Origin: Pisolithus tinctorius
Taxonomy: Eukaryota > Basidiomycota > Agaricomycetes > Boletales > Pisolithaceae
Assembly: GCA_024663395.1 (NCBI GenBank)
Contig: JANFAH010000027.1
Location: 496,001 to 560,000, forward strand
DNA length: 64,000 nucleotides
Direction of reading: 5' to 3'
The notes below the pieces were generated by a model. The model was not told the origin of the DNA. It was given only the letters and a program-made list of their open reading frames with translations, and searched no databases. Made by a program: the position numbers and the translations under genes. Each line of letters begins with the position of its first letter. Position 1 is the stretch's first letter. Shown here one piece after another: positions 2,324 through 62,267 of this stretch.

Positions 2324-2330
2324 AAGTGTG

Positions 2331-2340: not shown

Positions 2341-2342
2341 AC

Positions 2343-12621: not shown

Positions 12622-12680
12622 AGGTGCACAGCTGGAGTCAATGCAGCTCTCAGTTTGTGCAGAGTCCTGAGAGCTGCTAC

Positions 12681-12878
12681 CTATTTTTTTGCCTTGGGGG
12701 CAGAGCCTGAGGTTGAGGCCAGTGCTGCCTCAGAGGTTGCTGCAGTGTGAGCCTTGGCTTTCCCAGCTTTCTTTGGACACTTAGCTGCAAAATGTCTGGT
12801 TCCCCCACAGAACATGCAGAGGTTGTCATCTCTACAGCATTTGTGCTCCTCCAGTGTCAGCTTGCCATCTTTGCCCAA
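12681..12878 (-). pseudogene. C-terminal Gag fragment with CCHC knuckle, chromovirus A2
   Basis: Only the nucleocapsid end of Gag remains: GKLTLEEHKC, knuckle CMFCGGTRHFAAKC, and the terminal AKK before a stop that follows a seven-A run. The rest of gag is missing. The sequence passes at about 12899 into the middle of an LTR, which marks a deletion or unequal recombination joint. Confidence 0.8.
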
Positions 12879-12898
12879 CTTGCTAACAGAGGGGACTG

Positions 12899-13320
12899 AG
12901 TTATGATGAAACTAAGTTGATTTTAGACTGAGGCTAAACAGATTATCCTATGGCTTAAATACTAGAAGTAACCTAAGTGTAATGTAGCACTGGAGACTGA
13001 TCTGTGGTGGTACAACAATAGTTGGTAAACTGATTGGTAAGTAATGTTACAAAGAATATTATCAAGCAAAAGTATGAACAAGGGTTTTACTGGGAACCAG
13101 GGCAGGACTTGTGGGTGGGCTGGGTGTTACACCAGCCTGGTACTAACTGAGTGGACAACTCAATTGGGCACTGCCTTGCAGTGCTTCATGAACTAACACA
13201 TTTCTAGGTTGAGGGGTTAAGGCCAGGACTGGGGCAAGGGTTAGAGGAGGACCAGTTTAGACTGGGGTAGAGCCAGTCTAGGGTAGTCTGGGCATGGTCA
13301 TGACAGTATCCCCCTCTTGG
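12899..13320 (-). repeat. LTR fragment of the A family with polypurine tract
   Basis: 12899-13305 aligns with A1 LTR 2525-2925 and keeps the terminal TGTCATGACC on the minus strand. Just outside it (13306-13320) the minus strand reads CCAAGAGGGGGATAC, the polypurine tract normally found upstream of a 3' LTR. So this LTR was the 3' LTR of one copy, now joined to gag-pol of another, which fits a tandem array shortened by recombination. Confidence 0.75.
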
Positions 13321-17650: not shown

Positions 17651-18838
17651 ATGTCCTCCCAGTGCCAAAGAAAACCCCCCAGCCAACCCCTGGCCACATC
17701 TGTGACTACTCCCAAGTTGCAGATGAAGAACTGGTCATCCTCACCAATGACTCCACCAACACTGAGTCGGAGAAAACTGCAGAGAAGGCTTGCCAACAAG
17801 AGGAGAATGAGCAGAGAGAGAGGGAGTGCAAGGTGGAGCACAAGGCCAAGTGCAAGGAGGCCAAGAGGCAAAAGGTGGAGGAGGAGAGGTTGGAGGCAGA
17901 GCAGAGGAAGAGAGCAGAGGAGGAAGAGGAGGCTCAAAGGAGGAAGGTGGCAGAGGAGGAGGCAGAAAGGCAGAGGCAGAGGGCCCAAGCCTGGCAGGAA
18001 GAGGCTGCACAAAGGTAAGTGGTGGAGTACTGTGAACCAGGCAGAGCCAACTTGCAGTTTTTATTTTCTTAGATTATGCAGCATGGTGTATGACATCAAC
18101 ACTGCCCAGAGGGTCCCTGGGACCTCTGTGGTGGTTACCACAACCAGGAGGCCCCCTGCACTCACTGTGTAGCCAGTAAAACAGCCAGACAGTGTGAGCC
18201 AGGACAGGGCAAGACCAGGGCCTGCATGCCCTGCCACAACAAGAAAAAAACTTGCAGCTGGATGTGGGAGGAGGCAGTGGTGGGGCCATTGCAGAAGAGA
18301 GCAGGGATGGGGAGTTCCCAAGGGGAGAAGAAGAAAAGGGTGTGAGGGAAGGGGAAGGTGAGGGCAATGGAGATGGACAAAGCAGATGACAAGTGGGACA
18401 CAGAAAGATGAGGAGGAGCCAGCAACACCACACAAGGGCCCTTCTGTGGCATGGGTGCACATGTGGTGGGTGGAGTGGGAGTGGGAGTGGCAACTGCAGG
18501 CTGCAGAGTGCCATGCAGAGGCATACAAGAGGGCTGTGTTAGCCTTCAAGAGGATGGCAGAGGCTGCAGAGTGGACAGCAGATGAATGGGGAACATGCCA
18601 TGCCTGGGTGGAATGGGCAGAGATGAGGAGGAGGCAGGACACATGCAAGGCCAGGATGGCTGAACTTGAGCATGTGGGAGGAGGTTGGAAGAGGCCAGAG
18701 TCAGAGGTAGCAGAGGACAAGAATGAGGAGCCAGATGAAGGTGTGGAGGGGGATAACAAGGAAGAGGAGGAAGTCAGAGGAGGGCAGGGAGGTGGTGAAG
18801 GACAGGAGGGTGGTGGAGAACATGTGATGGAGGAGTAG
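17651..18838 (+). pseudogene. Antisense accessory gene of chromovirus B: coiled coil, Cys cluster, acidic tail
   Basis: Runs opposite to gag-pol between chromodomain and 3' LTR. The likely start is ATG 17651 (MSSQCQRK...TTPKLQ), which resembles the start of the Y antisense protein (...TTPELQ); a frameshift follows. The coiled coil (17760-18010) is made of E/R/K repeats such as VEEERLEAEQRKRAEEEEE. A 58-bp intron is visible (18015-18072, GTAAGT...TTCTTAG). After a further frame change comes CTHC, ARQC, then CMPCHNKKKTC (about 18160-18275): CX2C-X8-C-X9-CX2CX6C, close to the fungal Zn2Cys6 pattern. The last part (18386-18838) is Trp/Ala/Glu-rich and ends in an acidic Gly/Glu tail. Related genes sit at the same place in X and Y. 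It is broken here; a role in DNA binding or in control of the element is inference. Confidence 0.7.
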
Positions 18839-22200: not shown

Positions 22201-24525
22201 TCCACTGTCAAACTTCCAGTTGGAAAGATGCGACTTAAATGGAAGTGGCATGTCAACATTTTCTATAGCACGAAGTGCTGTTTGGACTACAGGGTCTTTC
22301 ACGGAGGAGGACGCAACCTTCTGGGTAAGGTTGGTATTGATGAGGTTGACAAACAGGGTTGGAGGGAGGAGAGTAACTCCTTTGTTGTCCTCATCATCTT
22401 CAGGGATATGGTCAGGTCATCAGGAGAGGGCGTCTGGTGCGGCAAGATCTTTGCCAGGAACATGTTCAAGCTGCAGATCAAAGTCTGCAAGGTCAAGGAG
22501 CCAACAGGCCTGTCGACAATTTAAGTTCTGAGGTGACTTGAAGTAAGTCAGATTTTTGTGGTCGGTAAAGACCTTGACTGGGTACATGGATCCATGGAGA
22601 TAATGTCTCCAGGATTTCAGGGCTCAGATGACACCTAGGAGTTCTCTGTCATAGATGTCATAGTTTCATTTGGCAGGGTTAAATGACTGAGACAGGTAGG
22701 CACAAGGTTGCCACTGTCCATTCGAGTCTTCCTGTAGGAGGATACCTCCAGTTGCATATTTGGACACATCTGTCGTTATTGCGAATGGTCAAGAGACATC
22801 AGGCATTTGCAGGGTTGGTTGTGCCATGAATATCCATTTCAGGAGTTCAAAGGCATTCTGACATTTCTTTGACCACTCCCAACTGGTGGTTTTCTTTGTT
22901 AGATCGATGAGTGGTCAGGTGATGTCAGAGTAGTAGGGTATGAATCTCCTGTAAAAGTTTGTGAATCCTAGGAAGGATCGCACGTCCTTGACCTTCTTCA
23001 GAACAGGCCATTCAGCAATTCCTTGAACCTTGATGGGGTCCATGGTGACGGTATTTTCTTTAATGATCATTCCCAGGTATTCCACCTCAGGAAGATTGAA
23101 GTGACACTTTTCTAGTTTCAGAGGGAGTGATAACTCTCTCATTTGTTTGAGAACATGACAAGTTCTTTTTTTGTGTTCTTCGGAGTCATTGGAAAAGATG
23201 AGGAGATCATCCATATAGACGACCAACCATCCTTCTGCGATCATGTCTCGAAAGGAGTTGTTCATGAATCAATGAAAGGTGGCAGGGGAGTTGCACAACC
23301 CGAAGAACATGACCGTTGGTTCGAAGAGTCCTTTGTGCATGATAAATGCAGCTTTCCATTGGTCTCCTTCTTTGATATGGATGTTGTTATAGCCCGATCT
23401 GACATCCATCTTTGTAAAGATAGAGGCTCCTTTCAACTTGTCGACAAGATCTGAGATGAGGGGAAGGGGGTATGCATCCTTCACCATGTTCTTGTTTAAG
23501 TATCTGTAGTCTTGACAAGGGCGGAGGGAGCCATCCTTCTTTCCTACAAAGAAGAAAGGTGCGGCTTGAGGAGACTTCGAGGGGCAGATCTTTCCTTCTC
23601 GAAGGTGTTCTTCTATAAATTTCTCCACAGACTCTCATTCAGAGGGAGAGAGCGGGTATGCTTTTGCCACTTTGGGGACGAAGTCCTCTACAAGGTTGAT
23701 GGCATGATCGTATGGTCATGATGGAGGTAAAACTCCATCGGAGGGTTTCTCAAAGACTGAAGCAAAGTCTTTGTAATCTTCTGGAAGAACAGGTTTCAGC
23801 TTCTTTTTATGTTCCTCTTGGGCCAACTCAGTAGCTGTAGTGATTTTTCAAAGAAGACTATTGTTTGGGTTGATCTTCTTTGCTTCTTCGATGAGTTTCC
23901 CAACTGACATCATGAAATGTGTGCGGATGGTTTCATCTTCAGGTTCTTCATAGTCCATAAACTTGTTTATCCCTTTCTTCTCAGTGGGGGTCACAAGATT
24001 GACCATGGGTTCTTCTATAGCAACCATTGAGATGTTGCATTTCAGTTCTTTAGACCTATTGGTCTTTTCATCGATGGATAATGTACCCATCCTCCAGTCC
24101 ACAATGGGGTTGTTTTCCTGGAGCCAAGGTAGTCCAAGAATGACATTCTCCATTCCACAGTTAATGACATGGAAAAAGGACTGGTGAACGAGTCCTTTAA
24201 CCTTGAAGTAAAGGGTGGCGGAGAAGAGGATCTTTCCCTTGGAGTTTGGGGATCCATCTGCATTCTTTGTGAGGATGGGTTCAGCGAGTCATTGAGTGGG
24301 AATCTGGTGTTTTCAAATGAAAGTCCAATCGATGCAAGAAATTTCTGCTCCAGAGTCCACTAGAGCGGTGGTGTTGACGACTTTCGAGGTTGTTTCTGAT
24401 GCGTAAAGGGAAACAGGGATTTGCATAGTACGTTCTGGTGTGGAAGATACTAGTACAGGAGCAACAGAAACAAGACTGTCCTTAGTTTGGGGAACTTCTG
24501 GCATCAACTCAGAGTTCCCATTCAA
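22201..24525 (-). pseudogene. Protease, reverse transcriptase and RNase H of element C
   Basis: Protease: NTTALVDSGAEISCID (near 24350) and VILGLPWLQENNPIVDW (near 24130). [19 protein letters not shown] (about 23535-23485), [17 protein letters not shown] then TGA and FMNNSFRDM (23266, CGA expected), catalytic [13 protein letters not shown] (near 23215), [13 protein letters not shown]. RNase H follows at about 22850-22400 with several stops. Broken into four or more open pieces. Confidence 0.85.
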
Positions 24526-25718: not shown

Positions 25719-26088
25719 TGTTATGCTCGACCAAAGTCAAGTTGTAGGGAGAACTCAAATGCAGACTATTGGTTTCTACTGAGCAATGGCTGCAGTAACC
25801 TCTGTAAATGACAGAGGATTTGGGCAACGCCAGTAAGAGTGGTCCAGGTTAGGGACACTGAGGGCGAAGTTCTGAGTGAGAATGCTGCGTATGATTGAGC
25901 TAACTATGCCATTGGTTGAACAACAACGACACATGTCCTAAGCATGTTGAGAGAACGTATTGCTATTGATGGGAATAGAGAGCCATCGGATCAGAGAGAA
26001 GATGGCTCGAAAAGGAAAATAAGTCCAATGGATCAAACATGCAATAATCGTACAGTGAAAAGAGAAAAGACAGGGGTGAAACGTAACA
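25719..26088 (-). repeat. 5' LTR of element C (370 bp)
   Basis: Right-hand LTR, directly next to the TSD GATGG. The sequence just inside (plus 25711-25718, TGAGCTTT) does not match a tRNA end by eye, nor the LTR itself, so the priming mode of C is open. Confidence 0.92.
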
Positions 26089-27345
26089 GATGGTGAATGG
26101 ACCTAAGTACTTTTCAGAGAGTTTTTCTGAAGGACAAGTGGAGCAGAAGTACTTGGCCTTGACATAGGCCTGTGCTCTGACCTTGAACTCAGGCAGAGGT
26201 ATGTGTTTGGCATCTGCTGGACCCTGGTAGCACTGCTGAGTGGCAGACATTTTGGAGCAGAGGAAGTAATGAAGGGCAGAGAGCTCAACAATGTAGTTGT
26301 GAGCCCATGGAGAGGTGAAGTCTTGGTCAGGGCCCACAGACAGGTTTGGATGGTACCCCTTGTTGGCAAAGAAAGGGGAAACTCCAGTAGTTGCACTTGG
26401 TGCATTGTTAAAAGTGAACTCCACTAGAGGTAAGAGCTCAGCCCAGTTGTCTTGTTGGTAATTACAGTAGATGCAGAAGTACTGCTCAAGGGTCTGGTTC
26501 ATCCACTTGGTCTGGCCATTGCCTTCTGGATGGTAATCCAAGGTGAAGTGGAGATGCATATCAAGGGCCTTTCCTAGGGAGTGGGAGAAGTGGGAAACAA
26601 ACTCTGGACCTCTGTTGGAGGTGACATTAGCAGGTACTCTGTGCTTAGAGAAGACATGGGTAAGGAAGAGCTTAGCAAGTTTGGTGGAGGTGACAGAGTC
26701 ATGAGTGGGGATGAACACCACCTACTTTGAGAGGTGGTCCACTACCACAAGGATGGCAGAGTAGCCATTGGAGTTGGGGAGGTGTTTGATGAAGTCCATG
26801 GAGATGGAGTTCCATGGTCTCTCTGGGATGGGGAGCTGCTTCAGTAGACCATAGGGGTGGTGACACAGAGTTTTTCTCTGTCCACAGGTGGTGCAGGACC
26901 TGACATAATCCTTCATGTTGGAGCAGAGGTTAGGCCATACATAGTCTCTGTGGACAAGGTCTAGGGTGTGGTTTTGCCCAAAATGGCCTGCTAGGGGATG
27001 GTCATGCTTGAACCAAAGCACTTGGAGGTGGAGGTCATCAATGTCAGGGACAAAGATGCAACTGTCAAGGCAGAGGAGACCATTGGAGTCCAAACACCAC
27101 CAAGGGTTAGTTGGAGTTGGGAGGTGGCTGGTGGAGACAGGGTCAGAGGGTAAGGTGGAGATGATGTCAGAGTGCAAGCACTCAACATTGAAGACCATGG
27201 TGGTGCAGAGCACAGGTGCCATGAGGGTAGTGGTACAGAGGGACAATGTGAGCTGCTCCTGTGTAAACATAGGGCAGAGATTGTGAGGATTTACCTGCAC
27301 ATAGTCCCTATCCCCCCCTTTTGTGTAGACATCCCAATGGTGCAT
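26089..27345 (-). pseudogene. Integrase of element B, catalytic residues lost
   Basis: Zinc-binding module HDHPLAGHFGQNHTLDLVH with CTTCGQRK (near 27000-26880), linker YGLLKQLPIPERPW, catalytic core ISMDFIKHL (first D kept), a stop at 26719, then VTSNRGPEFVSHF where SDRG is expected (second D changed to N) and EGNGQTKWMNQTLEQY where QTER is expected (E changed to K). The frame runs to EKYLGPFTI at the point where element C is inserted, and resumes at 19405. Two of three catalytic acids are gone, so the enzyme would be dead. Confidence 0.9.
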
Positions 27346-29274
27346 AAGTGCATTGGGCTTGGCTCCTAAGCAGCCAGGTCAGAAGCAGATAGAGAGATTA
27401 AACTGGGAAAGGTACTCCAACCAGTGGGCCTGTCAACAGCTGAGAACCTTAGAAGTGGAGAAGTACTCAAGGTTTTCATGGCCCATCACCACATCAACAG
27501 GTAAGGCAGAACCCTCTAGGTAATGCTGCCAGTGGCAGAAGGCCTCAAAGATAGCCAACAGCTCCTTGTTATGGCTATCATAGTTGAGTTCTGGAATGGT
27601 CATGGTGCAGGAGTAGAAAGTGACTGGGCAGAGTTCACCATCAGAGCAGGTGGGGGACAAAATACCAGCAATGGCATAGTTGGAGGCATTGGTTTCAACT
27701 GTCAGTGGAGTGTCAGGAACCCAGTGAGTGAGGACAGGGGTGGAGCTGAAGGCATCCTTCAGGCAGAGGAAGGCAGAGCAACACTCCTCAGAAAAGTTCC
27801 AAGGAGTGCCATTTCATGTGAGGCAAGTGAGCAGAACAATGATGTCAGAGTAGTTATTAATGAATTGTCTATAGAAATTTGCAAAGCCGAGGAAGGACTG
27901 GATGTCTTGCACCTTCTGCAGCTCAGGCCAGTCATGGACTGCCTGAACTTTCTCAGTGGACATGGTGAGACTGGAGGGAGAGAGAATGTAGCTGAGGTAC
28001 TCAATGGAGTTGGAGTGGAACTCACACTTCTCTGGCTTGACATAGAGACCATGCTTTCAAAGGTGGTGGAGTACCTCTTTTATGTGTTTGCAGTGTGACT
28101 CCATGTCCTGTGAATAAATTAAAATCTCATCAAGGTATACCACAATGCAGACATTGAGCATGTCTGCAAAGATTAGTCAGACCAAAGGGCATTACCTGCC
28201 ACTTGTAAGAACCATAATGAGTGTGGAAAGTGGTTTTCCATTCATCTCCATCTGTGATGTGGACCAGATAATAGGCATGGCAGAGATCAATCTTTGTGTA
28301 GACTTTAGCACAGCTCAGAGAGTTGAGCAAGCCAGAGATGAGCAGCAGTGGATAGCAATCCTTTTTCTTTTATTGAGTCCTTGATAGTCTACACAGAGAC
28401 AGAGTGAACCATCCTTCTTCTTTACAAGGAGGACAGGGGCACCATGAGTGGAGGTGGACTCCTTGATGCTTGTCATTGAAGGAGTGGAGAGCTTCAAGCT
28501 CTGGCAGAGACAGAGAGTAGATTGTGCTGATAGGCAGAGAGGCTCCTTCCTTGAGGTCAATCTTGAGATCAAATGAGCAGTGTGGCAGAAGTTCAGTAGC
28601 CTTGTCTTTACTAAAGACATCAGCAAACTTGTGATACTCAGGAGGGACCAAGAAGAGGTCAGGAGGTGGAGAGGAAGTGGAGGATGCACAAAGCTTCACA
28701 TCATCAGCAGAGAGCTGTAAGTGGAACTGTCTAGAACCAGGGAGAGCACAGGCTCTGACATATGTGGCAGCATTGATGAGTGAGATGAGCAGAGCAGAAT
28801 GCAGTGAGTTGGTTGGAGTGCAGTCAGAGCTGCAGATGGAGCAGAGGTTGCAGCAGAAGGTGACAAAGGTGCCTGGGGTGTCAGCATTCCCTGTAATGGT
28901 GGTTTGAATGATATACTGCCCAGTACCCAGTCAATTGACAGATTGAAGTGGGTGAGCCAGTTGTGTCCTAATACCAGCAAACAAGAAGAATCCAATGGAG
29001 TAACATAAAATGAAATGGAGTTGACATTGCCAGAAGGAAAGTGGAGGGAAAGATCTACTTCTTGGGAAATGACAGCATTTTTACTACCATCAAACAAGCA
29101 GAGTGGAATTGGCAGAGAAACAGAGGAAACAGGAATAGCATATTTTTTGATTATAGACAGGTCTACAAAACAATGAGAAGAGCCAGAATTGATCAACACA
29201 GAAACAGTATTAACAGAATAACCAAGAAGAGTTACAGACAGAAATAAGGAATTGGGGCTAGAGAGAGTGGACAT
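27346..29274 (-). pseudogene. Protease, reverse transcriptase and RNase H of element B
   Basis: Protease (29274-28696) reads SVLINSGSSHCFVD: the catalytic Asp of DSG is Asn. [10 protein letters not shown] region near 28480, [47 protein letters not shown], then a deletion of about 35 nt that shifts the frame, and [10 protein letters not shown] (catalytic YLDD changed to YLDE). RNase H: VETNASNYAIAGIL and ELNYDSHNKELLAIFEAF at 27660-27433. Several stops. Inactive. Confidence 0.88.
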
Positions 29275-29351
29275 GTTGAGTCAGATGTCTGGTTGTGCAC
29301 AGTTGGGGTCAACACTTCCTCCAGGCTGTGCAAGCGCCCTGGAGGAGCAGA

Positions 29352-30659
29352 CTAATTTTTTGGCTCTGCCTTCTCCATGGGCAGAGGAGGCAGAGTTCCA
29401 GCCATAGCTGCATGGGCTTTGGTTGCACAAGAGGTTGACTTGGGACAGTCCTTGGCAGAGTGGCCAGCCTTGCCATAGAAGAGGCAGAGGTTGTTTTTCA
29501 TCCTGCACTGGTGTTCAGTGGAGATGAGTTTGCCATCCTTGCCCAGGAGGTGGGCAATGTCAGACTTGGGCAGATCTTTCTGTTTGCCCTTGCCCTTTGT
29601 GTCAGACTTTGGAGTGGAGGTGGAGGGTGATGATTTAGACTTGTTGTCAGAGTTGGAGGACTGTGACTTATTGGTGGCAGACTTGGTGGTGCATGAGATC
29701 TCCACTTTATGCTCCCAGTAGCATGCATCGATAGTTTGGGCAAGTTCACAGAGTTGTGCAAGGGTAGATGGTTTTCTGATGTGAGTGATCTCATCCTTGA
29801 TGCAGTCTGGAAGTCCACTATAGAAGTGGTGGCAGAGTGCAGCAACACCATAGTCTTTGACCTGTGAAGCCCAACAGTTGAACTCCAAGACATATTTGGT
29901 AATCTGAGAACCATCCTTCATAGTAAGGTTCTTGAGTTGTTGGATGGTGTCAGCTATGGCATCATGTGGACCAAAATTGGTTGTGAGTTCATGCAAGAAC
30001 TCATGATAGTCATCCATCCAGAGTGGGTGGTCATAGCCATCAGGGTTTAGCAGATCTGGCTCAAACCAAGCCAGGGCCATTCCCTTCAAGTAGGACTGAG
30101 TGAAGGTTACCTTTGCTCTGTCAGAGCAGAATGTGCAGGGGCAGTCTTGAAAGTTCAGCTCACATTGAATGAGGAACTTGCAGAGTTTCTTTGGGTCAGA
30201 GCCATCAAAGGTGTTGGCCTCATGGACTTTGGTTTTCAGAGCAGAGTCCCCAGTGCATGAACTAGACTGCACAAGCACATGGACAGTTCTAGCAAGAGCT
30301 ACAAGGGGATCCTCTGGCAGCTCAGCCAGGTCTTCAGGGATATCCCCATCACTGCTACCCCCACCATTGGGATCACCATCAGGGTAATCAGGGTCAGGGT
30401 TGGGTCCATCATCTTGATTACAAGGAGATGGAGTATGGAAGGCTGTTGGGTGGAGGTTGGAGTGACCAGCTTGTGAAGTGCTTTCGCCTTCAGCACAAGA
30501 GCAGTGTTGAGTGGAGAAGGACTGGAATTGTTTGATGACTAAGGGAAGACAACATGGATTAGCCAGTGCTGCTGTGAGGTTCTCAGTGACCTCTCTCTGG
30601 GATTGAGCTTGAGTTCTCATAACAATGTAAGTTTTTTGGAAGACAGAAAACAAGATCAT
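29352..30659 (-). CDS. Gag of element B, open over 435 codons, knuckle damaged
   Basis: Single open frame from ATG 30659; the internal Met at 30620 (MRTQAQSQ) matches the start used in X better. Acidic Asp/Pro/Gly segment (residues 83-115), capsid core (ANTFDGSDPKKL; YLKGMALAWFEPDLL; FGPHDAIADT; HHFYSGLPDCIKDEI), Ser/Lys-rich basic linker, then the knuckle CLFYGKAGHSAKDC, in which the second Cys is Tyr. It ends PKN-stop after a six-A run (CCAAAAAATTAG), comparable with the A7-TAG ends of the related elements. Confidence 0.85.
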   Translation of the reverse strand: MILFSVFQKTYIVMRTQAQSQREVTENLTAALANPCCLPLVIKQFQSFSTQHCSCAEGESTSQAGHSNLHPTAFHTPSPCNQDDGPNPDPDYPDGDPNGGGSSDGDIPEDLAELPEDPLVALARTVHVLVQSSSCTGDSALKTKVHEANTFDGSDPKKLCKFLIQCELNFQDCPCTFCSDRAKVTFTQSYLKGMALAWFEPDLLNPDGYDHPLWMDDYHEFLHELTTNFGPHDAIADTIQQLKNLTMKDGSQITKYVLEFNCWASQVKDYGVAALCHHFYSGLPDCIKDEITHIRKPSTLAQLCELAQTIDACYWEHKVEISCTTKSATNKSQSSNSDNKSKSSPSTSTPKSDTKGKGKQKDLPKSDIAHLLGKDGKLISTEHQCRMKNNLCLFYGKAGHSAKDCPKSTSCATKAHAAMAGTLPPLPMEKAEPKN

Positions 30660-30681: not shown

Positions 30682-31939
30682 TGTCAAGTCTGGGCCTACT
30701 CTGACCAACTCTGATGCTAGACAAGGTCTGGGGAGAGGTTTGGAAGCAAGTCTGACACAAAAGAACAGAACTCCAACTAGCAGAGTGTTGTCAGGAACAA
30801 AGTCTGCTGAAGAAAAGGTGGAGCAGAGTGAGGGTGTCAGGTTTAGCTCATGTGCTACCTGTCATAACCATGCCTCAATCCCAGTCAGACTTGGCCTCAC
30901 ACTCATTCAGTCCAGCCTCGGCCTCACCAACCACTTACCCCCAGTTAGTCTAGAGCGGTTAACACTGCTTTGCAGTGCATGTCACTTCCATTGAACTCTG
31001 CCTGGTCTTGTCCCCAGTCTGCCCTGTCCTGGTCTCCATTACCTTAGTCATATATTTCTAATACTAGTCATACCAATCACCTTAGCAATCTTTGCAAGAC
31101 TGGCATTACCAGTCTCCATACTATAGTTACTTCCAGTATATAAACCCATAGGTACTTGGCCTGTTCCCCTCAGTCTGAAATCAAATAAGTTCTATCTGTA
31201 ACTCTCAGCCTCAGACTCAGACTGCAACCCATGCAAGGGAATAGCACTGCATCATCAGTTGCTAAGTCCAATCAGTCCAACCTGTATCTCTGCTTCTTCT
31301 CTCTAATCCTGACCCCTTGGCCTCACACCCACTTTGGTCTCCAGTCTGGCCTCAACCCAGACTTCATGAACTTGACACTACCCCCTTGCATGAGCTCAGC
31401 CCTTGTATTTCAGAGGTAGAAACCAGATGGACAGTTGGAGGTAACTCCAACAGACAGAAGTTGGAGACAGAAGGAGTAGGAACTAAGTTGATATTCATAC
31501 TAAAGAACAGTGGAGTACAATACATGCTTTTATACTACTATGGAGGTACAGTAATTGGAATCAGAACTGACATATGGAGACACATAAATTTTCAAGTAAA
31601 ACTTCCTAGACAATGAATGAAGGGAAGATGGAGGACATAAGAACAGGTAACACAGAGCATCCAAAAAAGGAAACAGTCCAGGCACTGGACCATGCAGTGT
31701 GCATGCTGCAGAGTACCTGACTGCATGCTGTCAGGGAGAAGTCTGAAGGGTAGTCACACAACCCCTCAGAGAGCAGTCTGTGCAGTCTGGTAAGAGAGCA
31801 GTACAAGTCTGACAGCAGTTGGAGTGGAGATGGTTCATAAATGACAGAGGGCAGGTGGAGTTGGTGCAGAGTGAGTGAATGACTGGTGGAAAGGGGTGTG
31901 GAGTGAGTGAGGACTTAGGACAAATGCATGGTCATGACA
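30682..31939 (-). repeat. 5' LTR of element B, split by a solo LTR
   Basis: 735 bp after removal of the nested LTR 30860-31377 and one copy of its TSD. Minus-strand start TGTCATGACC, next to TSD TGCAG at 31940. Confidence 0.92.
30860..31377 (+). mobile_element. Solo LTR of the X family inside B's LTR
   Basis: 518 bp, TGTCATAACCATGCC to GAACTTGACA, similar along its length to the X LTRs (45517-46044 and 61745-62267). The flanking duplication is CTACC (30855-30859 and 31378-31382). A TATATAAAC box and CAGTCTGAAATCA start region are kept. It marks LTR-LTR recombination of a former full copy. Confidence 0.93.
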
Positions 31940-45516: not shown

Positions 45517-46044
45517 TGTCATAGCCATGCCTCGACCCTGGCCGGACTTAGCCTCGCACTCATTCAGTCTGGCCTCAGCCTTGCCTGTCCCCTATCCCCA
45601 GTTAGTCTAGTGTGGTGAACACTGCTTTGCAGTGTCTGTCACTTCAGTTGAATCCTGCCTGGTCTTGTCCCTGGTCCACCCTGTACCAGTCTCCGTCACA
45701 TTAGTCATACATTACTAATCCTTGTCTTACCAATTGTCTTAGCAATCTTTGTGAGACTGGCATTACTGGTCTCCATACTATAGTTGTCTCTAGTATATAA
45801 ACTCATAGATACTTGGCCTGTACTTCCTCAGTCTGAAATCAACTAAGTTTACTCTGATAACCCTGCCTCAGGCCTCAGACTCGGACTGAGACCCATGCAA
45901 GGGAATAGTGCTGCAACCTCAGTCACTAAGTCCAAACAGTCCAACCATCTGTATCTTCGACTCCCCTCCTGATCCCGCCCCCTCAGCCTCATGCCCACTT
46001 CAGTCTCTGGTCTGGACTCAACCCAGACAATCACGAACTTGACA
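45517..46044 (+). repeat. 5' LTR of X (528 bp)
   Basis: TGTCATAGCC to GAACTTGACA. Sister copies are 61745-62267 and the solo LTR 30860-31377. Confidence 0.94.
45794..45839 (+). promoter_or_regulatory. LTR promoter of X: TATA box and presumed transcript start
   Basis: TATATAA at 45794-45800 lies about 30 bases upstream of AGTCTGAAAT (45830-45839). That decamer is the reverse complement of the PBS, so it should be at or near the mRNA 5' end if the element is self-primed. Confidence 0.65.
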
Positions 46045-46046
46045 GT

Positions 46047-51031: not shown

Positions 51032-51519
51032 TGTCATATACCGGGAAACCTGTGGGTCGGTCTTAGGTTCAAAATGCCGGGTCAACGCCAACTGCCAAAA
51101 TGAGCTCTGTTTTCTTACTATACTTTTCTAGTTAGGCTCTGTACTGCCCTCACTTGTGCCGGGGCAGTGTCTGTCTTCGGCTCTCCAATCCCTGCCTTCT
51201 CGTTTAAACCTTTAGTTAGTTCTTTGCACAGCTATTTAGTTCCTCACTGGTAACCCTGGCCTTCGGGTTGCCAGTCTTCGGTATATATACTCTACATACG
51301 TTGTACTTTGTTCCTTAGTCTGAATATCAACTTAGTTCACCCCAAGTCCCCAGCTTAAGCCCAAGTTGACCCTTGGCTTTCGCTCCTGATCCCCCCTTGG
51401 CTTTCTCTGACTTCAACCTGGCTTGCACAAGGGTCTAGCACATGAGCTAAGACCAAGGGTTGTTGCACCCGATGCTCGGCCTTTGGCCTTCGACCCCCGA
51501 CCCAGTCACAGACTTAACA
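51032..51519 (+). repeat. 5' LTR of Y (488 bp)
   Basis: TGTCATATACCGGGAAACC to GACTTAACA. The partner is 58699-59186, same length, differing mainly by CG/TG/CA transitions. Confidence 0.95.
51282..51327 (+). promoter_or_regulatory. LTR promoter of Y: TATA box and presumed transcript start
   Basis: TATATATA (51282-51289) about 28 bases upstream of AGTCTGAATAT (51317-51327), the exact complement of the Y PBS. Confidence 0.65.
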
Positions 51520-55420: not shown

Positions 55421-56155
55421 TGTCAAGTCTGGGCCTACTCCAACCAACTCCGACACTTAACAAGGTCTGGGGAGGGGTCCAGAAGCAAGTCCAACACGAA
55501 TGAACAGAACTCTGACTAGCGGAGTGTTGGCAGGAACGAAGACCACTGAAGTAAAGGTGGCATGGAGTGAGGGCATCGGGTTTAGCTTGTGCGCTACCCC
55601 CTTGCACGATCTCAGCCCTCGTATTTCAGAGGGAGAGTACAGACGGAGAGTCGGAGATAACTCCGACAGTCAGAGGTCAGAGACAGAGGGAGTAGGAACT
55701 AAGTTGATATTTGTACTGAGGAACAGCGGAGTATGTTACATGCTTTTATACCACTATGGAAGTACAGTAACCAGAATCGGAACTGACATATGGAGACCCA
55801 GAAATTTTCAAGTGAAAACTTCCTAGACGATGAATGAAGGGTAGACGGAGGACATACGAACGGGTAACATAGAACATCCAGAAAAGGAAACAGTCCAGAT
55901 GCTGGACCATGCAGTGCATGCACTGCGGAGTACCTGACTGTGTGCTGTCAGGGAGAAGTCCGAAGGCAGCCACATGACCACTCAGAGAGCGGTCTGCTTG
56001 GTCTGGTAGGAGAACAACACAAGTCTGACAGCAGTCAGAGCAGAGATGGTTTGTAGACAATAGAGGGTGGGCAGAGTTGGTGCAGAGTGAGCGAATGATC
56101 GGCGGAAGAGGGTGTGAAGCGAGTAAGGACCTAGAGTGAATGCACGGTTATGACA
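55421..56155 (-). mobile_element. Solo LTR of the B family inside Y
   Basis: 735 bp, plus strand TGTCAAGTCTGGGCC to GGTTATGACA, same family as 16736-17468. TSD GTCCA (55416-55420 and 56156-56160). It keeps CpGs that are TG or CA in the two B LTRs, so it is younger or less mutated. Its R-region (ATATTTGTACT at 55707-55717 on plus) matches the B primer-binding site exactly. Confidence 0.94.
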
Positions 56156-57361
56156 GTCCACACCTTCATCAAAGAGTACGTGAGGTCCTGCACTATGTGC
56201 ACAAGAGCCAAAACACCCAGACACCGACCATACGGCACCCTGAAACAACTGCCGATACTGGAAAAGCCATGGAATTCCATTTCTATGGATTTCATTGAGC
56301 ACCTACCGGCATCCGGTGGTCACACCACTATCCTGGTGGTCATGGACCAACTATCCAAGCAGGCTGTGTTCATACCCACCCACGACACTATTACCTCCCC
56401 CAAGCTTGCTAAGCTCTTTCTACTCCATGTCTTCTCAAAACACGGTGTCCCAGCACATGTAACCTCCGACCAAGGCTCTGAATTTGTCTCTCACTTCTTC
56501 CGGTCCTTGGGTAAAGCGCTGGATATGTGCCTACACTTCACTTCTGGATACCACCCAGAAGGAGATGGCCAAACCAAATGAGCAAACCAGACCTTGGAAC
56601 AGTACCTCCGGGTATATTGCAACTACCAACAGGACAACTGGGCCGAGTTACTTCCATTGGCCGAGTTTGCCTACAACAATGCCCCAAGTGCCACCACCAG
56701 TGTCTCCCCTTTCTTCACCAACAAGGGCTACCACCCTAACCTCTCAGTCTTCCCCGAAAGGGACTTATCCTCGGTACAGGCTAGGGACTATGCCGTGGAC
56801 CTAGATGAACTACACCAGTTCCTACAAGAAGAGATGGCACTAGCCCAAGCCAGATACCAAGGTCCAGCAGATGCGAAAAGGCTACTGGTGCCTGAGATCA
56901 ACCTCAGCAACCAGGTCTATGTCAAAGCCAAGTACTTCCGGACCACAAGACCATCACAGAAACTCGCAGACAAGAACCTAGGCCCTTACCCAGTAATAGC
57001 CCAACCTGGCACCCACTCATTCACCCTTCGCCTCCCAGACTCCATGCGTGCGGTACACTTGGTGTTCCACGTATCACAGTTAGAACTGGCACACCCCAAC
57101 ACCATTCCGAACCAAACTCAGCCACCACCACCTCCAGTTGAGGTCGACGGTGAACCAGAGTACGAGATCGCTGAGATCCTCGACTCAAAGGTAGACCGAC
57201 AACGGAGGTGTAAGCTACAGTACCTGGTACACTGGGCTGGCTATGAGGGCACCGATGAAGAAACATCCTGGCTACCGGCCACCGAGCTGGGTAATGCTGA
57301 AGAGCTGCTCGCTGCATTTCATGCCACCTACCCTGGTAAACCCGGTCCAGTCACTAGTTAA
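56156..57361 (+). pseudogene. Integrase and chromodomain of Y, one TGA
   Basis: Continues the frame after the solo LTR: TFIKEYVRSCTMCTRAK (the two Cys of HHCC), SISMDFIEHL (first D), HVTSDQGSEFVSHF (second D), EGDGQTK then TGA where QTER is expected (the catalytic E is read as K), then LEQYLRVYCNYQQDNWAELL, VYVKAKYFRTTRPSQKL, VFHVSQLELA, and a chromodomain (EYEIAEILDSKVDRQRRCKL; WAGYEGTDEETSWLPATEL). It ends PGPVTS-stop. Confidence 0.92.
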
Positions 57362-57487: not shown

Positions 57488-58558
57488 TCACTCGGAGTCC
57501 CCCTCGAACACCTCCCCGTTGCTCGCCCGAAGCTCCTTTTCCTCCCCACTCCCCGAGTCAGACCACCGACCCTTCATGTGTACGTCCTCGGGCCAGCACA
57601 TGACCCCCTCATCCAACTCCACCCCTGCTCTTTCATGATCCGACTGGAGGCTCTCGAGCTCCAGGTCTGCCATGTCTGAGTGCAGCTCTTCACTGGACTC
57701 AGACGACGGGGTGGACGGGCAGAGAGCGAACTTGAACTCACCCAGTAAATCACCCAGCCAACTATTGAATCGGCACTGGGTCCCCCTCCTGGCTCGCATC
57801 TTGGCAGTTTGACGGTCCATGGCTGCTGCAATCAGCTCGAAACCTTTGACCACTGCCGCAACCAGAGGGTCGGAGGAGGCGGTGGTGGGTGCAACCACTC
57901 CCGAGGGGCTGGCTTCTGACTCACCGGGCACCCCAGACTCGGTTCAGGTAACTTTCTTCTTCTCCCCGGCCCTCGGCGATGTAGCATCCTCCGGTGCTCT
58001 TTTCTTCCCAGCCTTCGCCCCAGCCTCTTCAATCTCGGGCTCCACTCCCTCGGGCAACTCACATTTGACCTTCATCTCAGTGCACCGGTCACACGTCCTC
58101 TTCTTGCGCTTACTCTGTTGTGTGCGACTAAAGGTGCATGGCACCCACCCCTTCTCACACTGTTGGCACAATACGGTGTTCACAACACCAGTACTCATAG
58201 CCTGCGCCTTGCCCTTCAGCTCCCCTGTCTTCTGTTGCGCCTGGATCTCCTGTTCCCGGCATTTGGCTTCCAACCGCTCCTGCTCCTTCCTCTCGGCCTC
58301 CATCCACTCCCTTTCATGCTGCTCGGCTTCCAACCGCTCCCTCTTGCGCTGCTTGGCCTCCAGTCGCTCTCTCTCGAGCCTCTCCACCTCCAACCGAGTG
58401 GCCTCTTCCCTCAATGCCTTGCGCCACTTGCGCTCAGCCATCTTGGCCCGGATGTCAGCCTCCTTGTCATCACTGGTGATCTGGAGTTCGGGTGTGGTGG
58501 CCTTCTGGAAGGCAGATGAGTCGGTGGGTATGCGTGGGGAGGCTTGATGAGAAGGCAT
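57488..58558 (-). pseudogene. Antisense accessory gene of chromovirus Y: coiled coil, Zn2Cys6-type cluster, acidic tail
   Basis: Opposite strand to gag-pol, between chromodomain and 3' LTR. ATG 58558 (MPSHQASPRI), about 140 bp inside the 3' LTR edge; about 356 codons with a single TGA at 57944-57946. Residues 30-105 form a highly charged coiled coil (ERLEAKQRKRERLEAEQHER). Then CQQCEKGWVPC and, after 14 residues, CDRCTEMKVKC: CX2CX6C-X14-CX2CX6C, the exact fungal Zn(II)2Cys6 spacing, with a basic KRKKR in the linker. A basic stretch (KAGKKRAPE) follows, then a helical segment and an acidic C-terminus. No conserved pol frame explains this region on the other strand. A DNA-binding regulator is the obvious guess, without direct proof. 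Confidence 0.8.
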
Positions 58559-58685
58559 GATGAAGAAGTCAGAAGAAAACAGTCTTCGCAAAAATGCACC
58601 TTTTAACCCCAGGGAACATGTGTTCTATCAGCATGGTGACTGCCGACCTTGTGTACCTTAGGGCAGGTCTTGAGGGCTCGACCCT

Positions 58686-58698
58686 AAGGGGGGGATAC
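58686..58698 (+). promoter_or_regulatory. Polypurine tract of Y
   Basis: AAGGGGGGGATAC directly before the 3' LTR. Confidence 0.75.
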
Positions 58699-59186
58699 TG
58701 TCATATACCGGGAAACCCATGGGTCGGTCTTAGGTTCAAAACACCAGGTCAACACCAACTGCTGAAATGAGCTCTGTTTTCTTACTATACTTTTCTAGTT
58801 AGGCTCTGTACTGCCCTCACTTGTGCTGGGGCAGTGTCTGTCTTTGGCTCTCTGATCCCTGCCTTCTCGTTTAAACCTTTAGTTAGTTCTTTGCACAGCT
58901 ATTTAGTTCCTCACCAGTAACCCCGGCCTTCAGGTTGCCAGTCTTCGGTATATATACTCTACATACGTTGTACTTTGTTCCTTAGTCTGAATATCAACTT
59001 AGTTCACCCCAAGTCCCCAGCTTAAGCCTGAGTTGACCCTCAGCTTTCGCTCCTGATCCCCCCTCGGCTTTCTCTGACTTCAACCCGGCTTGCACAAGGG
59101 TCTAGCACACGAGCTAAGACCAAGGGTTGTTGCACCCAACGCTCGGCCTTCGGCCTTCAACCCCTGACCCAGTCACAGACTTAACA
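58699..59186 (+). repeat. 3' LTR of Y (488 bp)
   Basis: Pairs with 51032-51519. Its left part lies upstream of the antisense gene and could hold that gene's promoter. Confidence 0.95.
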
Positions 59187-60340
59187 CTAAGGTTCCCTGC
59201 CATTGGCCTTATGGCCTCCTCAAGCAACTCCCAGTGCTGGAGAAACCATGGAACTCCATATCTATGGATTTCATTGAGCAACTTCTGGCCTCAACTGGCT
59301 TCACAGCCATCCTTGTTGTAGTTGACTGGCTTTCCAAGCAGGCCATATTCATCCCCACCCACAACACCATCACAGCCCCAGAACTCGCCAGGTTATTCCT
59401 ACTCCATGTCTTTTCGAAGCATGGAGTGCTGGCCCATGTAACCTCAGACCGAGGCTTGGAGTTTGTCTCCCACTTCTTCTGGTCACTCGGTAAGGCCTTA
59501 GACATGCACTTACATTTCACCTCGGGCTACCACCCCGAAGGAGATGGCCAGACTGAGAGGACCAACCAGACCCTGGAACAGTATCTCTGAGTGTACTGCA
59601 ACTACCAGCAGGACAACTGGGCTGACTTACTACCCCTGGCCAAATTTGCTTACAATAATGCCCCTAGCACTACTACTGGTGTTTCCCCTTTCTTCGCTAA
59701 TAAGGGCTACCATCCCAACATCTCTGCAGTGTACCCAGAGTGCAACCTTACCTCTGCTCGGGCTTGTGACTATGCAGTCAACTTAGACTCACTGCATCAA
59801 TACCTATGGGAAGAAATGACCCTAGCACAACAGCACTATCAAGGACTGGCCAATGCTAAATGCATGCTGGCTCCAGACTTCAAGGTTGGTGACCAGGTAT
59901 ATGTCAAAGCCAAATACTTCCAGTCTACCTGGCCTTCCAAGAAGCTCTTGGAGAAGAACCTTGGACTGTACCCAGTCATAGCTCAGGCTGGTACCCACTC
60001 ATTCACACTGTGCCTGCTGGACTCAATGTGCACAGTACACCCAGTCTTCCATGTCTCCCAACTCAAGCTGGCCATCCCTAATACCATCCCGAACCGGACT
60101 CAACCACCACCCCCACCAGTTGAAGTTGACAGTGAACTAGAGTTTGAGGTAGCAGAAATCCTTGACTCCAAGGTTGATTGGCATCACTGGTGTTGGCTTC
60201 AATACTTAGTCCGGTGGACTGGCTATGAGGGGACTGATGAAGAAACCACTTGGGTACTAGCTATGGAGCTAGACAATGCCTCTGAACTCATACAAGAATT
60301 CCACTCCTGCTACCCTAATAAACCCAGCCCCTTCCAATGA
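59187..60340 (+). pseudogene. Integrase core and chromodomain of X, one TGA
   Basis: The frame resumes after Y: PYGLLKQLPVLEKPW-type linker (read here as WPYGLLKQLPVLEKPW), SISMDFIEQL, HVTSDRGLEFVSHF, EGDGQTERTNQTLEQYL (D, D and E all kept), then TGA at 59588-59590, YCNYQQDNWADLLPLAKFAY, VYVKAKYFQSTWPSKKL, VFHVSQLKLA, and a chromodomain (EFEVAEILDSKVDWHHW; WTGYEGTDEETTWVLAMEL). Natural-looking stop at 60338. Confidence 0.92.
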
Positions 60341-60439
60341 GGACTGGCTGCAACCAGCCTCAGTTTCTGTTCTGTTTTCTATTGGTATCTAGTTTTCCTT
60401 TGATCTCTTACTTACCTTGTTTCTCTTTCTTGTTTTCCC

Positions 60440-61603
60440 TTACTTTACTGTATGACACCGAGACCGGACACCACACATGACATTCACAGAAGAAAAAAAA
60501 AAAAAAACCACAAGGCCCTATGCTAAGGTACTGCTCACCCTCAGCCATGGCTTCATCCTCCCCCTCGGTCCCCTCCTCTTCATCCTTGCCATGGGTTTTC
60601 AGCCATTCAGCCTCCTCATGCAACTCATCCAAGTCAAACTTGGATGACCCTGAGTCCAAAGGGGTGACTGCCACCCTGAAGCCATAGGATTTGTCAAGAA
60701 TTGACTGGAGTGCATCAGCAATGTGGCCCAAGTTTTCGACCATGGTCTCATGAAGTTCGAAGAGCCCTGCCAAATTGTTGGCAATGAGCCCTGCAACATT
60801 GATGAGCTGCTTGAGCTTGTCCTCTAAGCCCAAGGGTCCCCCCGCACTGACCTTCCTCACCCCATTCCCACTGGCTTCGGGCTCGTCAATTTCCAGTACC
60901 TTGATCAGTTTCGATTTTGCCCATTTCCTCTGGCTAAGCCTGGGCTCAGGCATCCCATCATCAGCCTTCTGCTTCTTCCCTTTGTTGACCTTGTAGGTGA
61001 CCTTGGGACCAGCCTCAGAGTCCTTCCTGTCTCCAGGCCACTGGCATTTGCCCTTCGACTGGTTGCAGTGGACACAGGCAACCCATTTTTTGTTGCTGTC
61101 CATGAGGAATTTGCAGACAACTTGAGCCCAGGCACAGCGCATGCAGCTAAAAAAGAATGTCAAGAGAAGAACACACAGGATGGGGAGGGTACTCACCCAG
61201 GGTCCATAACCACCTTTTTTACTTTGCCGGCCTTGCTACCACCGGCCCCAGCTTTGTTACCCTTCCCAGCCTTGGCCTTGTGTCTTCACTCAGCCTCCCT
61301 TTCCACCTTGGCCTTGTGTCTCTCTTCCTCCTTGTGCACCCTTTGCTCCTTGGCCTCCCATGCTATCCTTTCAGCCTCAACTCACTCCCTCTCCACTCAC
61401 TTGGCCTCAAGCCAAGCCTGTTCCTCCCACTGGGCTTGTTCAGCTGCCTTTCACCTCTTCCTTTCCTTCGATTTGGCCTTCATCACCTCTTCCTCATCAT
61501 CAGTGTCATACCTAATCTTGTCATCAGGTACTTGGGTCCAGTTGATGATGGCCCAGCCCTCATTGTTGTTATCGGCAGTGACAATCAGCCTTGCTTTGGA
61601 CAT
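60440..61603 (-). pseudogene. Antisense accessory gene of chromovirus X: three exons, Zn2Cys6-type cluster
   Basis: ATG 61603 (MSKARLIVTADNN), 142 bp from the 3' LTR. Exon 1 (61603-61197) encodes an acidic start, then a charged coiled coil carrying several TGA codons where Arg fits. Intron 1 (61196-61147, GTGAGT...TTTTAG, 50 bp). Exon 2 (61146-60539) opens with CMRCAWAQVVC and, after 12 residues, CVHCNQSKGKC: CX2CX6C-X12-CX2CX6C, exact Zn(II)2Cys6 spacing. Then basic and helical parts (LIANNLAGLFELHETMVENL) and an acidic end (DEEEGTEGEDEAMAE). Intron 2 (60538-60448, GTGAGC...ATACAG) leads to a two-codon last exon and TAA. The frame holds over both junctions, 1023 coding bases in total. Homologous in layout to the genes in Y and B. 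Confidence 0.8.
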
Positions 61604-61744: not shown

Positions 61745-62267
61745 TGTCATAGCCATGCCTTGACCCCAGCTGGACTTTGCACTCATTCAGTCTGGCCTCA
61801 GCCTCACCTGTCCCCTATCCCCAGTTAGTCTAGTGTGGTGAACACTGCTTTGCAGTGTCTGTCACTTCGGTTGAATCCTGCCCAGTCTTGTCCCCAGTCC
61901 ACCCTGTCCCGGTCTCCATCACATTAGTCATACATTACTAATCCTTGTCTTACCAAATTTCTTAGCAATCTTTGCGAGACTGGCATTACCAGTCTCCATA
62001 CTATAGTTGTCTCTAGTATATAAACTTGTAGATACTTGGCCTGTACTTCCTCAGTCTGAAATCAACTAAGTTTACTCTGATAACCCTGCCTCAGGCCTCA
62101 GACTTGGACTGAGACCCATGCAAGGGAATAGTGCTGCAACCTCAGTTGCTAAGTCCAAACAGTCCAACCATCTGTATCTTCGACTCCCCTCCTGATCCTG
62201 CCCCCTCGGCCTTGTGCCCACTTTGGTCTCCAGTCCAGACTCAACCCAGACAATCATGAACTTGACA
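61745..62267 (+). repeat. 3' LTR of X (523 bp)
   Basis: Pairs with 45517-46044; differs by a small deletion near 61785 and scattered transitions. Confidence 0.94.

What the first reader, a model, noticed from the sequence alone, without database searches (positions are those of the whole stretch)
57488..61603. Antisense Zn2Cys6 / coiled-coil genes in the 3' ends of chromoviruses X and Y
Seen: in both elements the strand opposite gag-pol, between chromodomain and 3' LTR, encodes a protein with the same order of parts: a charged coiled coil, a cysteine cluster CX2CX6C-X12/14-CX2CX6C, a basic and helical middle, an acidic tail. The X gene has two GT-AG introns and stays in frame across both, which is hard to get by chance. 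Known: this cysteine spacing is that of fungal Zn(II)2Cys6 DNA-binding domains. Inferred: a self-encoded DNA-binding regulator made from the 3' LTR, in layout reminiscent of antisense genes of some complex retroviruses. I do not know of a described case in fungal chromoviruses, but could not search the literature.
Basis: partly seen in the sequence, partly recalled or inferred. Interest (0 to 1): 0.9.

Follow-up and report, generated by a model that had tools for sequence, protein, structure and literature searches.

The report
Antisense zinc-cluster genes in fungal retrotransposons
Several families of jumping genes in a forest fungus carry, on the strand opposite their normal genes, an extra selected gene for a DNA-binding-like protein, probably a regulator of the jumping gene itself.

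Summary
The finding is real and larger than reported. The window is from Pisolithus tinctorius. Both chromoviruses carry, between chromodomain and 3' LTR on the opposite strand, a gene for a charged-helix / six-cysteine / basic / acidic protein. Antisense-frame dN/dS is 0.17 (X, 25 copies) and 0.23 (Y, 30 copies), like Y integrase-chromodomain (0.20); LTR DNA gives 0.50-0.73. X has one antisense intron, not two, kept in 28 of 28 copies and drifting like third codon positions; its junction motif occurs 175 times in the genome. Both window copies are dead, but 10 of 28 X and 3 of 40 Y copies are open. Two more families have such genes: Z, and V inside this window. Y-like genes also stand free in tandem beside a telomere, with LTR remnants upstream. 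X and Z LTRs share an inverted repeat, CACTGC-N3-GCAGTG, 240-267 bp upstream of the antisense ATG; Y and one V-type LTR have the half-site arranged otherwise: a candidate operator. Transcription and DNA binding are not shown. Antisense genes at this place are known in plant elements and fungal Boty; a spliced zinc-cluster gene is a new variant, not found in the papers searched.

The parts
57488..58558 (-). Y antisense gene, no intron; 356 codons plus stop; window copy has one in-frame TGA at 57946-57944
   Evidence: 40 rows aligned; dN/dS 0.233, codon bootstrap 0.194-0.280 in 30 rows
58061..58168 (-). Y six-Cys cluster CX2CX6CX14CX2CX6C
   Evidence: Cys kept in 178 of 180 cells over 30 rows
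61197..61603 (-). X antisense gene, exon 1 (charged helix); 4 in-frame TGA in the window copy
61147..61196 (-). X antisense intron, GTGAGT...TTTTAG, phase 2, directly before the Cys cluster
   Evidence: kept in 28 of 28 distinct copies, 48-62 nt; divergence 0.327 against 0.20/0.13/0.36 at codon positions 1/2/3 in 25 rows
60534..61146 (-). X antisense gene, exon 2 (Cys cluster, basic part, middle part, acidic tail); terminal stop lost in the window copy
61044..61145 (-). X six-Cys cluster CX2CX6CX12CX2CX6C
   Evidence: 149 of 150 cells over 25 rows
56585..57361 (+). Y integrase C-part and chromodomain (sense)
   Evidence: dN/dS 0.202 in 26 rows; 78% identical to Z pol, whose chromodomain passes the Pfam cut-off
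59594..60340 (+). X integrase C-part and chromodomain (sense)
   Evidence: 81% identical to Z pol
58699..59186 (+). Y 3' LTR (5' LTR 51032-51519); 5-bp target-site duplication CTAAG
   Evidence: 28 transitions and no transversion between the two LTRs over 485 aligned sites
61745..62267 (+). X 3' LTR (5' LTR 45517-46045); target-site duplication GCTGG
61843..61857 (.). X LTR inverted repeat CACTGC-TTT-GCAGTG (also 45620-45634 in the 5' LTR), 240-254 nt upstream of the antisense ATG: candidate operator
   Evidence: 9 of 9 X LTR rows, two of them from this element; 6 of 508 windows of that shape are as conserved
58810..58835 (.). Y LTR inverted repeat ACTGCC-N14-GGCAGT (also 51143-51168 in the 5' LTR), 252-277 nt upstream of the antisense ATG
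   Evidence: 24 of 28 Y LTR rows have both arms; 26 of 456 windows of that shape are as conserved
17651..18838 (+). V antisense gene, a third one in this window, opposite a minus-strand chromovirus end at 19403-19047; intron 18015-18072; window copy frame-broken
   Evidence: one of two fetched copies (L084) codes an open 386-aa protein
55421..56157 (-). V-type LTR inserted in the Y integrase region, with everted repeat GCAGTG-CATG-CACTGC at 55911-55926
   Evidence: 82% over 740 columns to the V 3' LTR region

Best explanation
Shown: four related chromovirus families (X, Y, Z, V) of Pisolithus tinctorius carry an accessory gene between the integrase/chromodomain end and the 3' LTR side, on the antisense strand, with its own start and, in X, Z and V, its own GT-AG intron. 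The X and Y genes are under purifying selection as strong as Y integrase-chromodomain. Because the genome-copying RNA is the sense strand, an antisense intron is not spliced out during retrotransposition (reasoning from the known replication cycle), so each new copy keeps it. Inferred: the mRNA starts in or near the 3' LTR, is spliced, and makes a nuclear, probably dimeric zinc-cluster protein (charged helix, six Cys, basic stretch, middle part, acidic tail: the layout of a transcription regulator). It binds the CACTGC/GCAGTG repeat about 100-120 bp inside the LTR, upstream of the sense TATA-like box and 240-277 bp upstream of its own ATG, and so controls LTR transcription and its own gene.
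For: Coding: antisense-frame dN/dS 0.172 (X) and 0.233 (Y), 0.091 and 0.127 with CpG columns masked, against 0.31-1.76 (X) and 0.35-1.28 (Y) in the other five frames and 0.50-0.73 in the LTR; Y integrase-chromodomain 0.202. No other frame is stop-free in any of 30 Y or 28 X genomic copies. Non-CpG variants shared by 4 or more copies change the protein at 36% (Y) and 39% (X) of sites where 66% and 70% are expected; singletons are near expectation (61% against 70%; 78% against 74%): constraint before insertion, drift after. Intron kept in 28 of 28 X copies; junction motif 175 times in the genome, reversed control 0. Intron at the same point and phase in Z, beside an open pol. X-Y profile match E 2.5e-16. 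Of 39 fetched Y copies (chosen by the gene) 38 have a chromodomain match and 34 an LTR match in the same stretch. Operator: CACTGC-N3-GCAGTG at 1027 places, reversed control 0; N6 version 11, control 1; everted GCAGTG-N4-CACTGC 83, control 1. X and Z LTRs are 71% identical, yet both arms are intact and the next pair outward changed on both sides, A..T to G..C. 8 of 9 X junctions in the range where both lists are shown have the repeat 612-675 nt upstream.
Confidence: 0.55

Rival explanations
1. Anti-silencing factor: the protein binds its own element family and removes or blocks CpG methylation or heterochromatin, as VANC does for VANDAL elements.
For: Decay is dominated by CpG-type change: 73 of 75 Y and 24 of 27 X in-frame stops are TGA, 70 of these 97 at codons where other copies read CGA, and 14 of 28 Y LTR differences are CpG-type, as expected if the elements are methylated. 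VANC21 binds a short element-specific motif in vitro (PMC5735166, abstract and section 8).
Against: No relation to VANC was tested or is claimed. Methylation of these loci was not measured.
Confidence: 0.2
2. The protein acts in the replication cycle rather than in transcription: nuclear entry of the pre-integration complex or choice of integration site, via a DNA-binding zinc cluster and basic stretches.
For: Constraint comparable to integrase-chromodomain; basic stretches after the cluster. Such roles have been suggested for plant antisense genes (PMC7264820).
Against: It does not need an LTR operator, and a trans-acting transcription role would be selected as well.
Confidence: 0.15
3. The LTR repeat is bound by a host factor, or is an RNA hairpin, and the antisense protein binds elsewhere.
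For: Host factors often drive LTRs (general knowledge). The X repeat could form a 7-bp stem with a 3-nt loop (read from the sequence, not folded).
Against: The same half-site in LTRs of four families that all carry the zinc-cluster gene, with family-specific spacing and orientation.
Confidence: 0.2
4. Only the antisense RNA matters (dsRNA control of the element) and the reading frame is incidental.
For: Antisense transcripts can act as RNA (discussed in PMC7264820).
Against: Protein-level constraint, mostly frame-keeping indels, near-invariant Cys, conserved splice sites.
Confidence: 0.02
5. Artefact: a chance ORF opposite a sense-strand coding region.
For: The sense frame whose third positions face those of the antisense frame also has low dN/dS (0.35 in Y, 0.31 in X), and the window has sense ORFs of up to 263 aa over this DNA.
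Against: The antisense frame is lower in both families; no sense frame is stop-free through the gene in 30 Y and 28 X copies; the intron makes sense only in the antisense direction.
Confidence: 0.01

Closest known systems
Antisense additional ORFs (aORF-3R) of plant LTR retrotransposons: Grande gene23, RIRE2, Retand ORF4/TRP28, PvRetro13
   Same: Same place (pol to 3' LTR) and orientation; present in many copies; conservation like other element proteins; nuclear or DNA-binding suggestions (PMC7264820 parts 1-2; PMC11963269 passages)
   Different: Plants; Retand is non-chromovirus; other proteins (TRP28, SMC). In what I read there is no zinc cluster and no conserved antisense intron
Boty / BcGypsy1 gene brtn of Botrytis cinerea
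   Same: A fungal Ty3 element with an added antisense gene between pol and 3' LTR (Zhao et al. 2011, seen only as cited in PMC7264820 and PMC8365987)
   Different: Ascomycete. I had no brtn sequence to compare, so homology is untested
Fungal Zn(II)2Cys6 binuclear cluster (Pfam PF00172)
   Same: Six Cys, CX2CX6C-X12-CX2CX6C in X and Z; basic residues beside one Cys trio; databases name some Pisolithus relatives 'Zn(2)-C6 fungal-type' (28 of the 120 listed, 4 of 29, my count)
   Different: Below the Pfam cut-off; halves in swapped order; charged helix before the cluster; carried by a retrotransposon
VANC anti-silencing proteins of Arabidopsis VANDAL elements
   Same: Element-encoded protein that recognises a short motif of its own family (shown for VANC21, proposed here)
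   Different: Plant VANDAL elements (DNA transposons, recalled); VANC acts on methylation; no homology tested
Antisense nuclear regulators of HTLV (HBZ, APH-2)
   Same: Antisense gene of a retroelement with a nuclear role (as cited in PMC11963269)
   Different: No bZIP family among the Pfam matches of the X, Y, Z, V or subtelomeric proteins scanned

Membership tests
Antisense aORF between pol and 3' LTR | Antisense to gag-pol, between pol and 3' LTR | tested here: met
   X and Y in the window; Z beside an open pol with LTR start beyond it; V opposite an integrase/chromodomain end with LTR beyond it. Of 39 fetched Y copies 38 have a chromodomain match and 34 an LTR match
Antisense aORF between pol and 3' LTR | Conservation like other element proteins | tested here: met
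   dN/dS 0.233 (Y) and 0.172 (X) against Y integrase-chromodomain 0.202; not tested for Z and V
Antisense aORF between pol and 3' LTR | Present in most copies of the family | tested here: inconclusive
   Copies were picked by the gene itself; not counted from pol
Antisense aORF between pol and 3' LTR | Transcribed in antisense | not testable with these tools
   No RNA data
Zn(II)2Cys6 cluster (PF00172) | Six Cys with canonical spacing | tested here: met
   X and Z CX2CX6CX12CX2CX6C; Y X14 linker; V looser, CX2CX8CX9CX2CX6C; six Cys invariant in 18 of 18 X proteins
Zn(II)2Cys6 cluster (PF00172) | Pfam gathering score (21 bits) | tested here: not met
Zn(II)2Cys6 cluster (PF00172) | Cys half with the basic helix comes first | tested here: not met
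   Profile positions 1-14 fall on the second Cys half in X, Y and the subtelomeric proteins; profile 16-38 on the first half in Z
Zn(II)2Cys6 cluster (PF00172) | Binds two zinc ions and DNA | not testable with these tools
Chromovirus (Ty3/Gypsy) | Chromodomain at the integrase C terminus | tested here: met
   PF00385 in Z pol 1192-1247, above cut-off; X 81% and Y 78% identical over that end; V 60%
VANC-type anti-silencing protein | Causes loss of methylation on its own elements | not testable with these tools
   No methylation data
HBZ-type antisense bZIP regulator | bZIP domain | tested here: not met
   Not among Pfam matches

The most novel reading that the evidence does not exclude
Fungal chromoviruses carry a self-recognition system: an antisense, spliced zinc-cluster regulator and a matching LTR operator made of CACTGC half-sites. 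Families differ in half-site geometry (inverted N3 in X and Z, inverted with a wide spacer in Y, everted N4 in V), so each regulator addresses its own family, as Zn2Cys6 factors tell sites apart by spacing. At telomeres the gene has separated from its element and is kept as a tandem host-side gene, perhaps to control the elements.
Probability: 0.3. Interest if true: 0.92.

Novelty: new variant of a known kind. Interest (0 to 1): 0.78.

Why it matters
Antisense genes of LTR retrotransposons have been noted for years without a known function (PMC7264820). Here such a gene is under measured protein-level selection, carries a conserved antisense intron, exists in four families and hundreds of candidate places of one genome, and comes with a specific candidate DNA target. 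That turns 'what do antisense retrotransposon genes do' into one binding assay and one reporter assay. It also suggests that many proteins now annotated as hypothetical or 'Zn(2)-C6' in Pisolithus are retrotransposon genes, which may inflate counts of fungal transcription factors and species-specific genes.

Tried and rejected
Sense-strand coding over the same DNA: rejected. Relatives outside Pisolithus: the Y searches gave 23 and 26 Pisolithus proteins plus 6 and 2 weak unnamed matches that look like coiled-coil similarity; the X search listed 120 of 185, all Pisolithus; IMG/VR gave none confirmed. Wider distribution stays open: 65 X hits were not listed and other fungal genomes could not be searched. 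Solved structures: six matches, E 0.32 to 3.2, not meaningful. One search used a pattern that I derived wrongly; 0 matches, no weight. Another local chromovirus end (24.3-26.2 kb) showed no such gene. CGG half-sites typical of Gal4-type factors (recalled) were not seen as a conserved LTR feature, by eye only. Literature searches.
Full report
WHERE IT IS. The window is G000:C27:496001-560000 of a 92.5-Mb assembly. Contig lengths of that assembly equal those of Pisolithus tinctorius BKA82DRAFT records (C14 1,451,474; C15 1,431,670; C7 2,459,050; C8 2,371,960), so the organism is that ectomycorrhizal bolete. Y (LTRs from 51032 and 58699, target-site duplication CTAAG) is nested in the integrase region of X (LTRs from 45517 and 61745, duplication GCTGG).

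WHAT THE SEQUENCE SHOWS. Y: minus strand 58558-57488, one exon, one in-frame TGA in this copy. X: minus strand from 61603, exon 1, a 50-nt intron GTGAGT...TTTTAG at 61196-61147, exon 2 to 60534; four in-frame TGAs in exon 1 and a lost terminal stop in this copy. Each protein has a charged helix-like stretch (in Y with a 30-nt, 10-residue period), six Cys, a basic stretch, a middle part and an acidic tail. The two strict six-Cys patterns are the only ones in six frames of the window; the window read backwards has none. The looser V cluster does not fit that pattern.

IS IT MORE THAN CHANCE. Own-genome search scored 40 of 79 Y candidates and 40 of 319 X candidates. Y: 3 of 40 are open from ATG to stop; 27 of 40 rows have no out-of-frame indel relative to the window copy, one of these (L053) with a long insertion. 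X: 10 of 28 are open. For dN/dS I dropped 10 Y rows (6 rearranged or broken, 4 near-duplicates) and 4 X rows (the window duplicate L009, frameshifted L015 and L061, and L068, whose ATG my extraction had cut off; it has one in-frame stop). The 30 Y rows still include some frameshifted copies, laid on window coordinates. Antisense-frame dN/dS: Y 0.233 (bootstrap 0.194-0.280), X 0.172 (0.144-0.205); with CpG columns masked 0.127 and 0.091. Other frames: Y 0.35-1.28, X (exons joined) 0.31-1.76; LTR (22 rows) 0.50-0.73, so the no-selection level is below 1 here; integrase-chromodomain of Y (26 rows) 0.202. The X intron diverges at 0.327, near third codon positions (0.363) and above first and second (0.20, 0.13). 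Outside CpG sites, variants shared by four or more copies are depleted in protein changes (36% in Y and 39% in X against 66% and 70% expected); those in 2-3 copies are depleted in Y (34% against 63%) and only slightly in X (62% against 70%); singletons are near expectation (61% against 70%, 78% against 74%); at CpG sites no class is depleted. This is constraint in the source lineage, then drift. In-frame stops are TGA in 97 of 102 cases, 70 of them at codons where other copies have CGA.

THE SPLICE SITES. GTRAGT and YAG are kept in 28 of 28 distinct copies; intron lengths run from 48 to 62 nt. The exact exon-intron motif occurs 175 times in the genome (84 + 91), with no match of the reversed pattern. 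An intron on the antisense strand is not removed from the sense genomic RNA, so it should survive retrotransposition; no intron-less X copy was seen among those fetched.

RELATIVES. X and Y proteins match as profiles (probability 98.7, E 2.5e-16; part of this is the charged stretch, but the Cys columns align). A third family, Z, was met as weak hits of a Y search: L082 holds gag, an open pol with protease, RT, RNase H, integrase and chromodomain by Pfam, and an open antisense gene with an intron at the X position and phase (EVMSPR|C against VVMDPG|C); L081 holds a second open Z gene. A fourth, V, lies in this window at 17651-18838, opposite a minus-strand chromovirus end at 19403-19047; it has a 58-nt phase-2 intron farther upstream of the cluster, a looser cluster CX2CX8CX9CX2CX6C, 40 scored places of 404 candidates, and an open 386-aa reading in L084, one of two copies fetched. 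Z and V selection was not measured. Protein databases gave 23 and 26 Y-type Pisolithus proteins (P. tinctorius, P. orientalis) and 185 X-type hits, of which 120 were listed, all Pisolithus.

FREE-STANDING GENES. Contig C2 begins with telomere-like TAACCC repeats; at 2594-3592 and 4295-5356 it has two tandem open Y-like genes (333 and 354 aa), about 45% identical to Y, pair dN/dS 0.354. A near-identical pair lies about 6-9 kb from the end of C55 (whose own end I did not read; it may be the other allele or a duplication), and a third place at the start of C45 was seen only as a search hit. No match of Y RT or of X or Y integrase-chromodomain lies in the 8 and 6 kb fetched. Upstream of each ATG in C2 is sequence like the Y LTR start, polypurine tract and leader (local score 94 against a maximum of 63 in 300 shuffles; 72 against 56), so they most likely came out of an element. 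Whether the host uses them is unknown.

CANDIDATE TARGET. X LTR has ACACTGC-TTT-GCAGTGT, the one Z LTR seen GGCACTGC-AAG-GCAGTGCC, Y LTR ACTGCCC-N12-GGGCAGT. X and Z LTRs are 71% identical over 495 aligned sites, yet the arms are unchanged and the next pair outward changed on both sides. The V-type LTR inside Y has GCAGTG-CATG-CACTGC, the same half-sites turned outward (55911); the V 3' LTR has a related but inexact repeat, and the third V-type stretch of the window (30682-31939) has no exact one. Genome counts: N3 1027 (reversed control 0), N6 11 (control 1), everted N4 83 (control 1). These counts partly reflect LTR copy number, and only the listed places that I could tie to X junctions were checked: in the range where both lists are shown, 8 of 9 X junctions have a repeat 612-675 nt upstream and 4 of 9 a second one about 6.4 kb on the other side, as two LTRs of one element would. 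The repeat lies 240-277 nt upstream of the antisense ATG in X, Y and Z and upstream of the sense TATA-like box at X 62017 and Y 58949, a place from which both promoters could be governed. Conservation: 6 of 508 X windows and 26 of 456 Y windows of the same shape are as conserved: high, not unique. The patterns were not found in the two subtelomeric loci. It could also be an RNA hairpin or a host site.

MECHANISM. Best reading: antisense mRNA from the 3' LTR region, spliced, gives a nuclear zinc-cluster protein that binds LTR half-sites as a dimer and controls the sense promoter and its own gene. Selection (X, Y), intron, placement and repeat are shown; transcription, zinc, binding, dimer and direction of control are inferred. 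I put the coding claim at about 0.97 and the LTR-regulator mechanism at about 0.55.

KNOWN AND NEW. [quoted passage not shown] PMC11963269 and PMC8365987 passages); the Retand TRP28 proteins are predicted to bind DNA. I found no description of one in basidiomycete chromoviruses, of a zinc cluster, or of a conserved antisense intron in searches, which cover open-licence PubMed Central papers only and of which I saw the listings. The main texts of PMC10066745 (Pisolithus genomes), PMC5689174 (Boletales repeats) and PMC10799480 (fungal TE co-option), searched by word and seen in passages, hold no 'antisense'. Hence: new variant of a known kind.

Noticed in passing
window 17651-18838 +: A third antisense zinc-cluster gene (family V) in this window, not in the finding, opposite a minus-strand chromovirus end; frame-broken here, open in L084.
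   Followed up: yes
L077:2594-5356 and L078:1901-4714: Tandem, open, free-standing Y-like genes, those of L077 next to telomere-like repeats, with LTR and polypurine-tract remnants upstream; possible domestication.
   Followed up: partly
Y copies: In the same 19 copies the antisense gene is more diverged at silent sites (pS 0.40) than the neighbouring integrase-chromodomain (0.24), and the LTR differs by 0.13; module exchange or a higher local mutation rate, unexplained.
   Followed up: partly
window 55421-56157 and 30682-31939: V-type LTRs: one inside the Y integrase region, one interrupted by a stretch with an X-type LTR repeat (30963).
   Followed up: partly
window 26086-30362 and 20908-24363: Further minus-strand chromovirus-like remains (best pol pieces 62% and 35% to Z pol); no antisense zinc gene detected at the 3' end of the first (24.3-26.2 kb).
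   Followed up: partly
window 787-2789 and 10123-13169: Z-like gag and pol pieces on the minus strand with Z-type LTR repeats at 2789 and 13169.
   Followed up: no
X antisense proteins (A1 columns around 230-240): A conserved EVLEIDEPE stretch after the basic part resembles SUMO-interacting motifs (recalled, untested).
   Followed up: no
Y antisense leader, about 58650-58672: The leader stretch AGACCTGCCCTAAGGTACA upstream of the antisense ATG is largely conserved in Y copies and recurs upstream of the subtelomeric genes.
   Followed up: no
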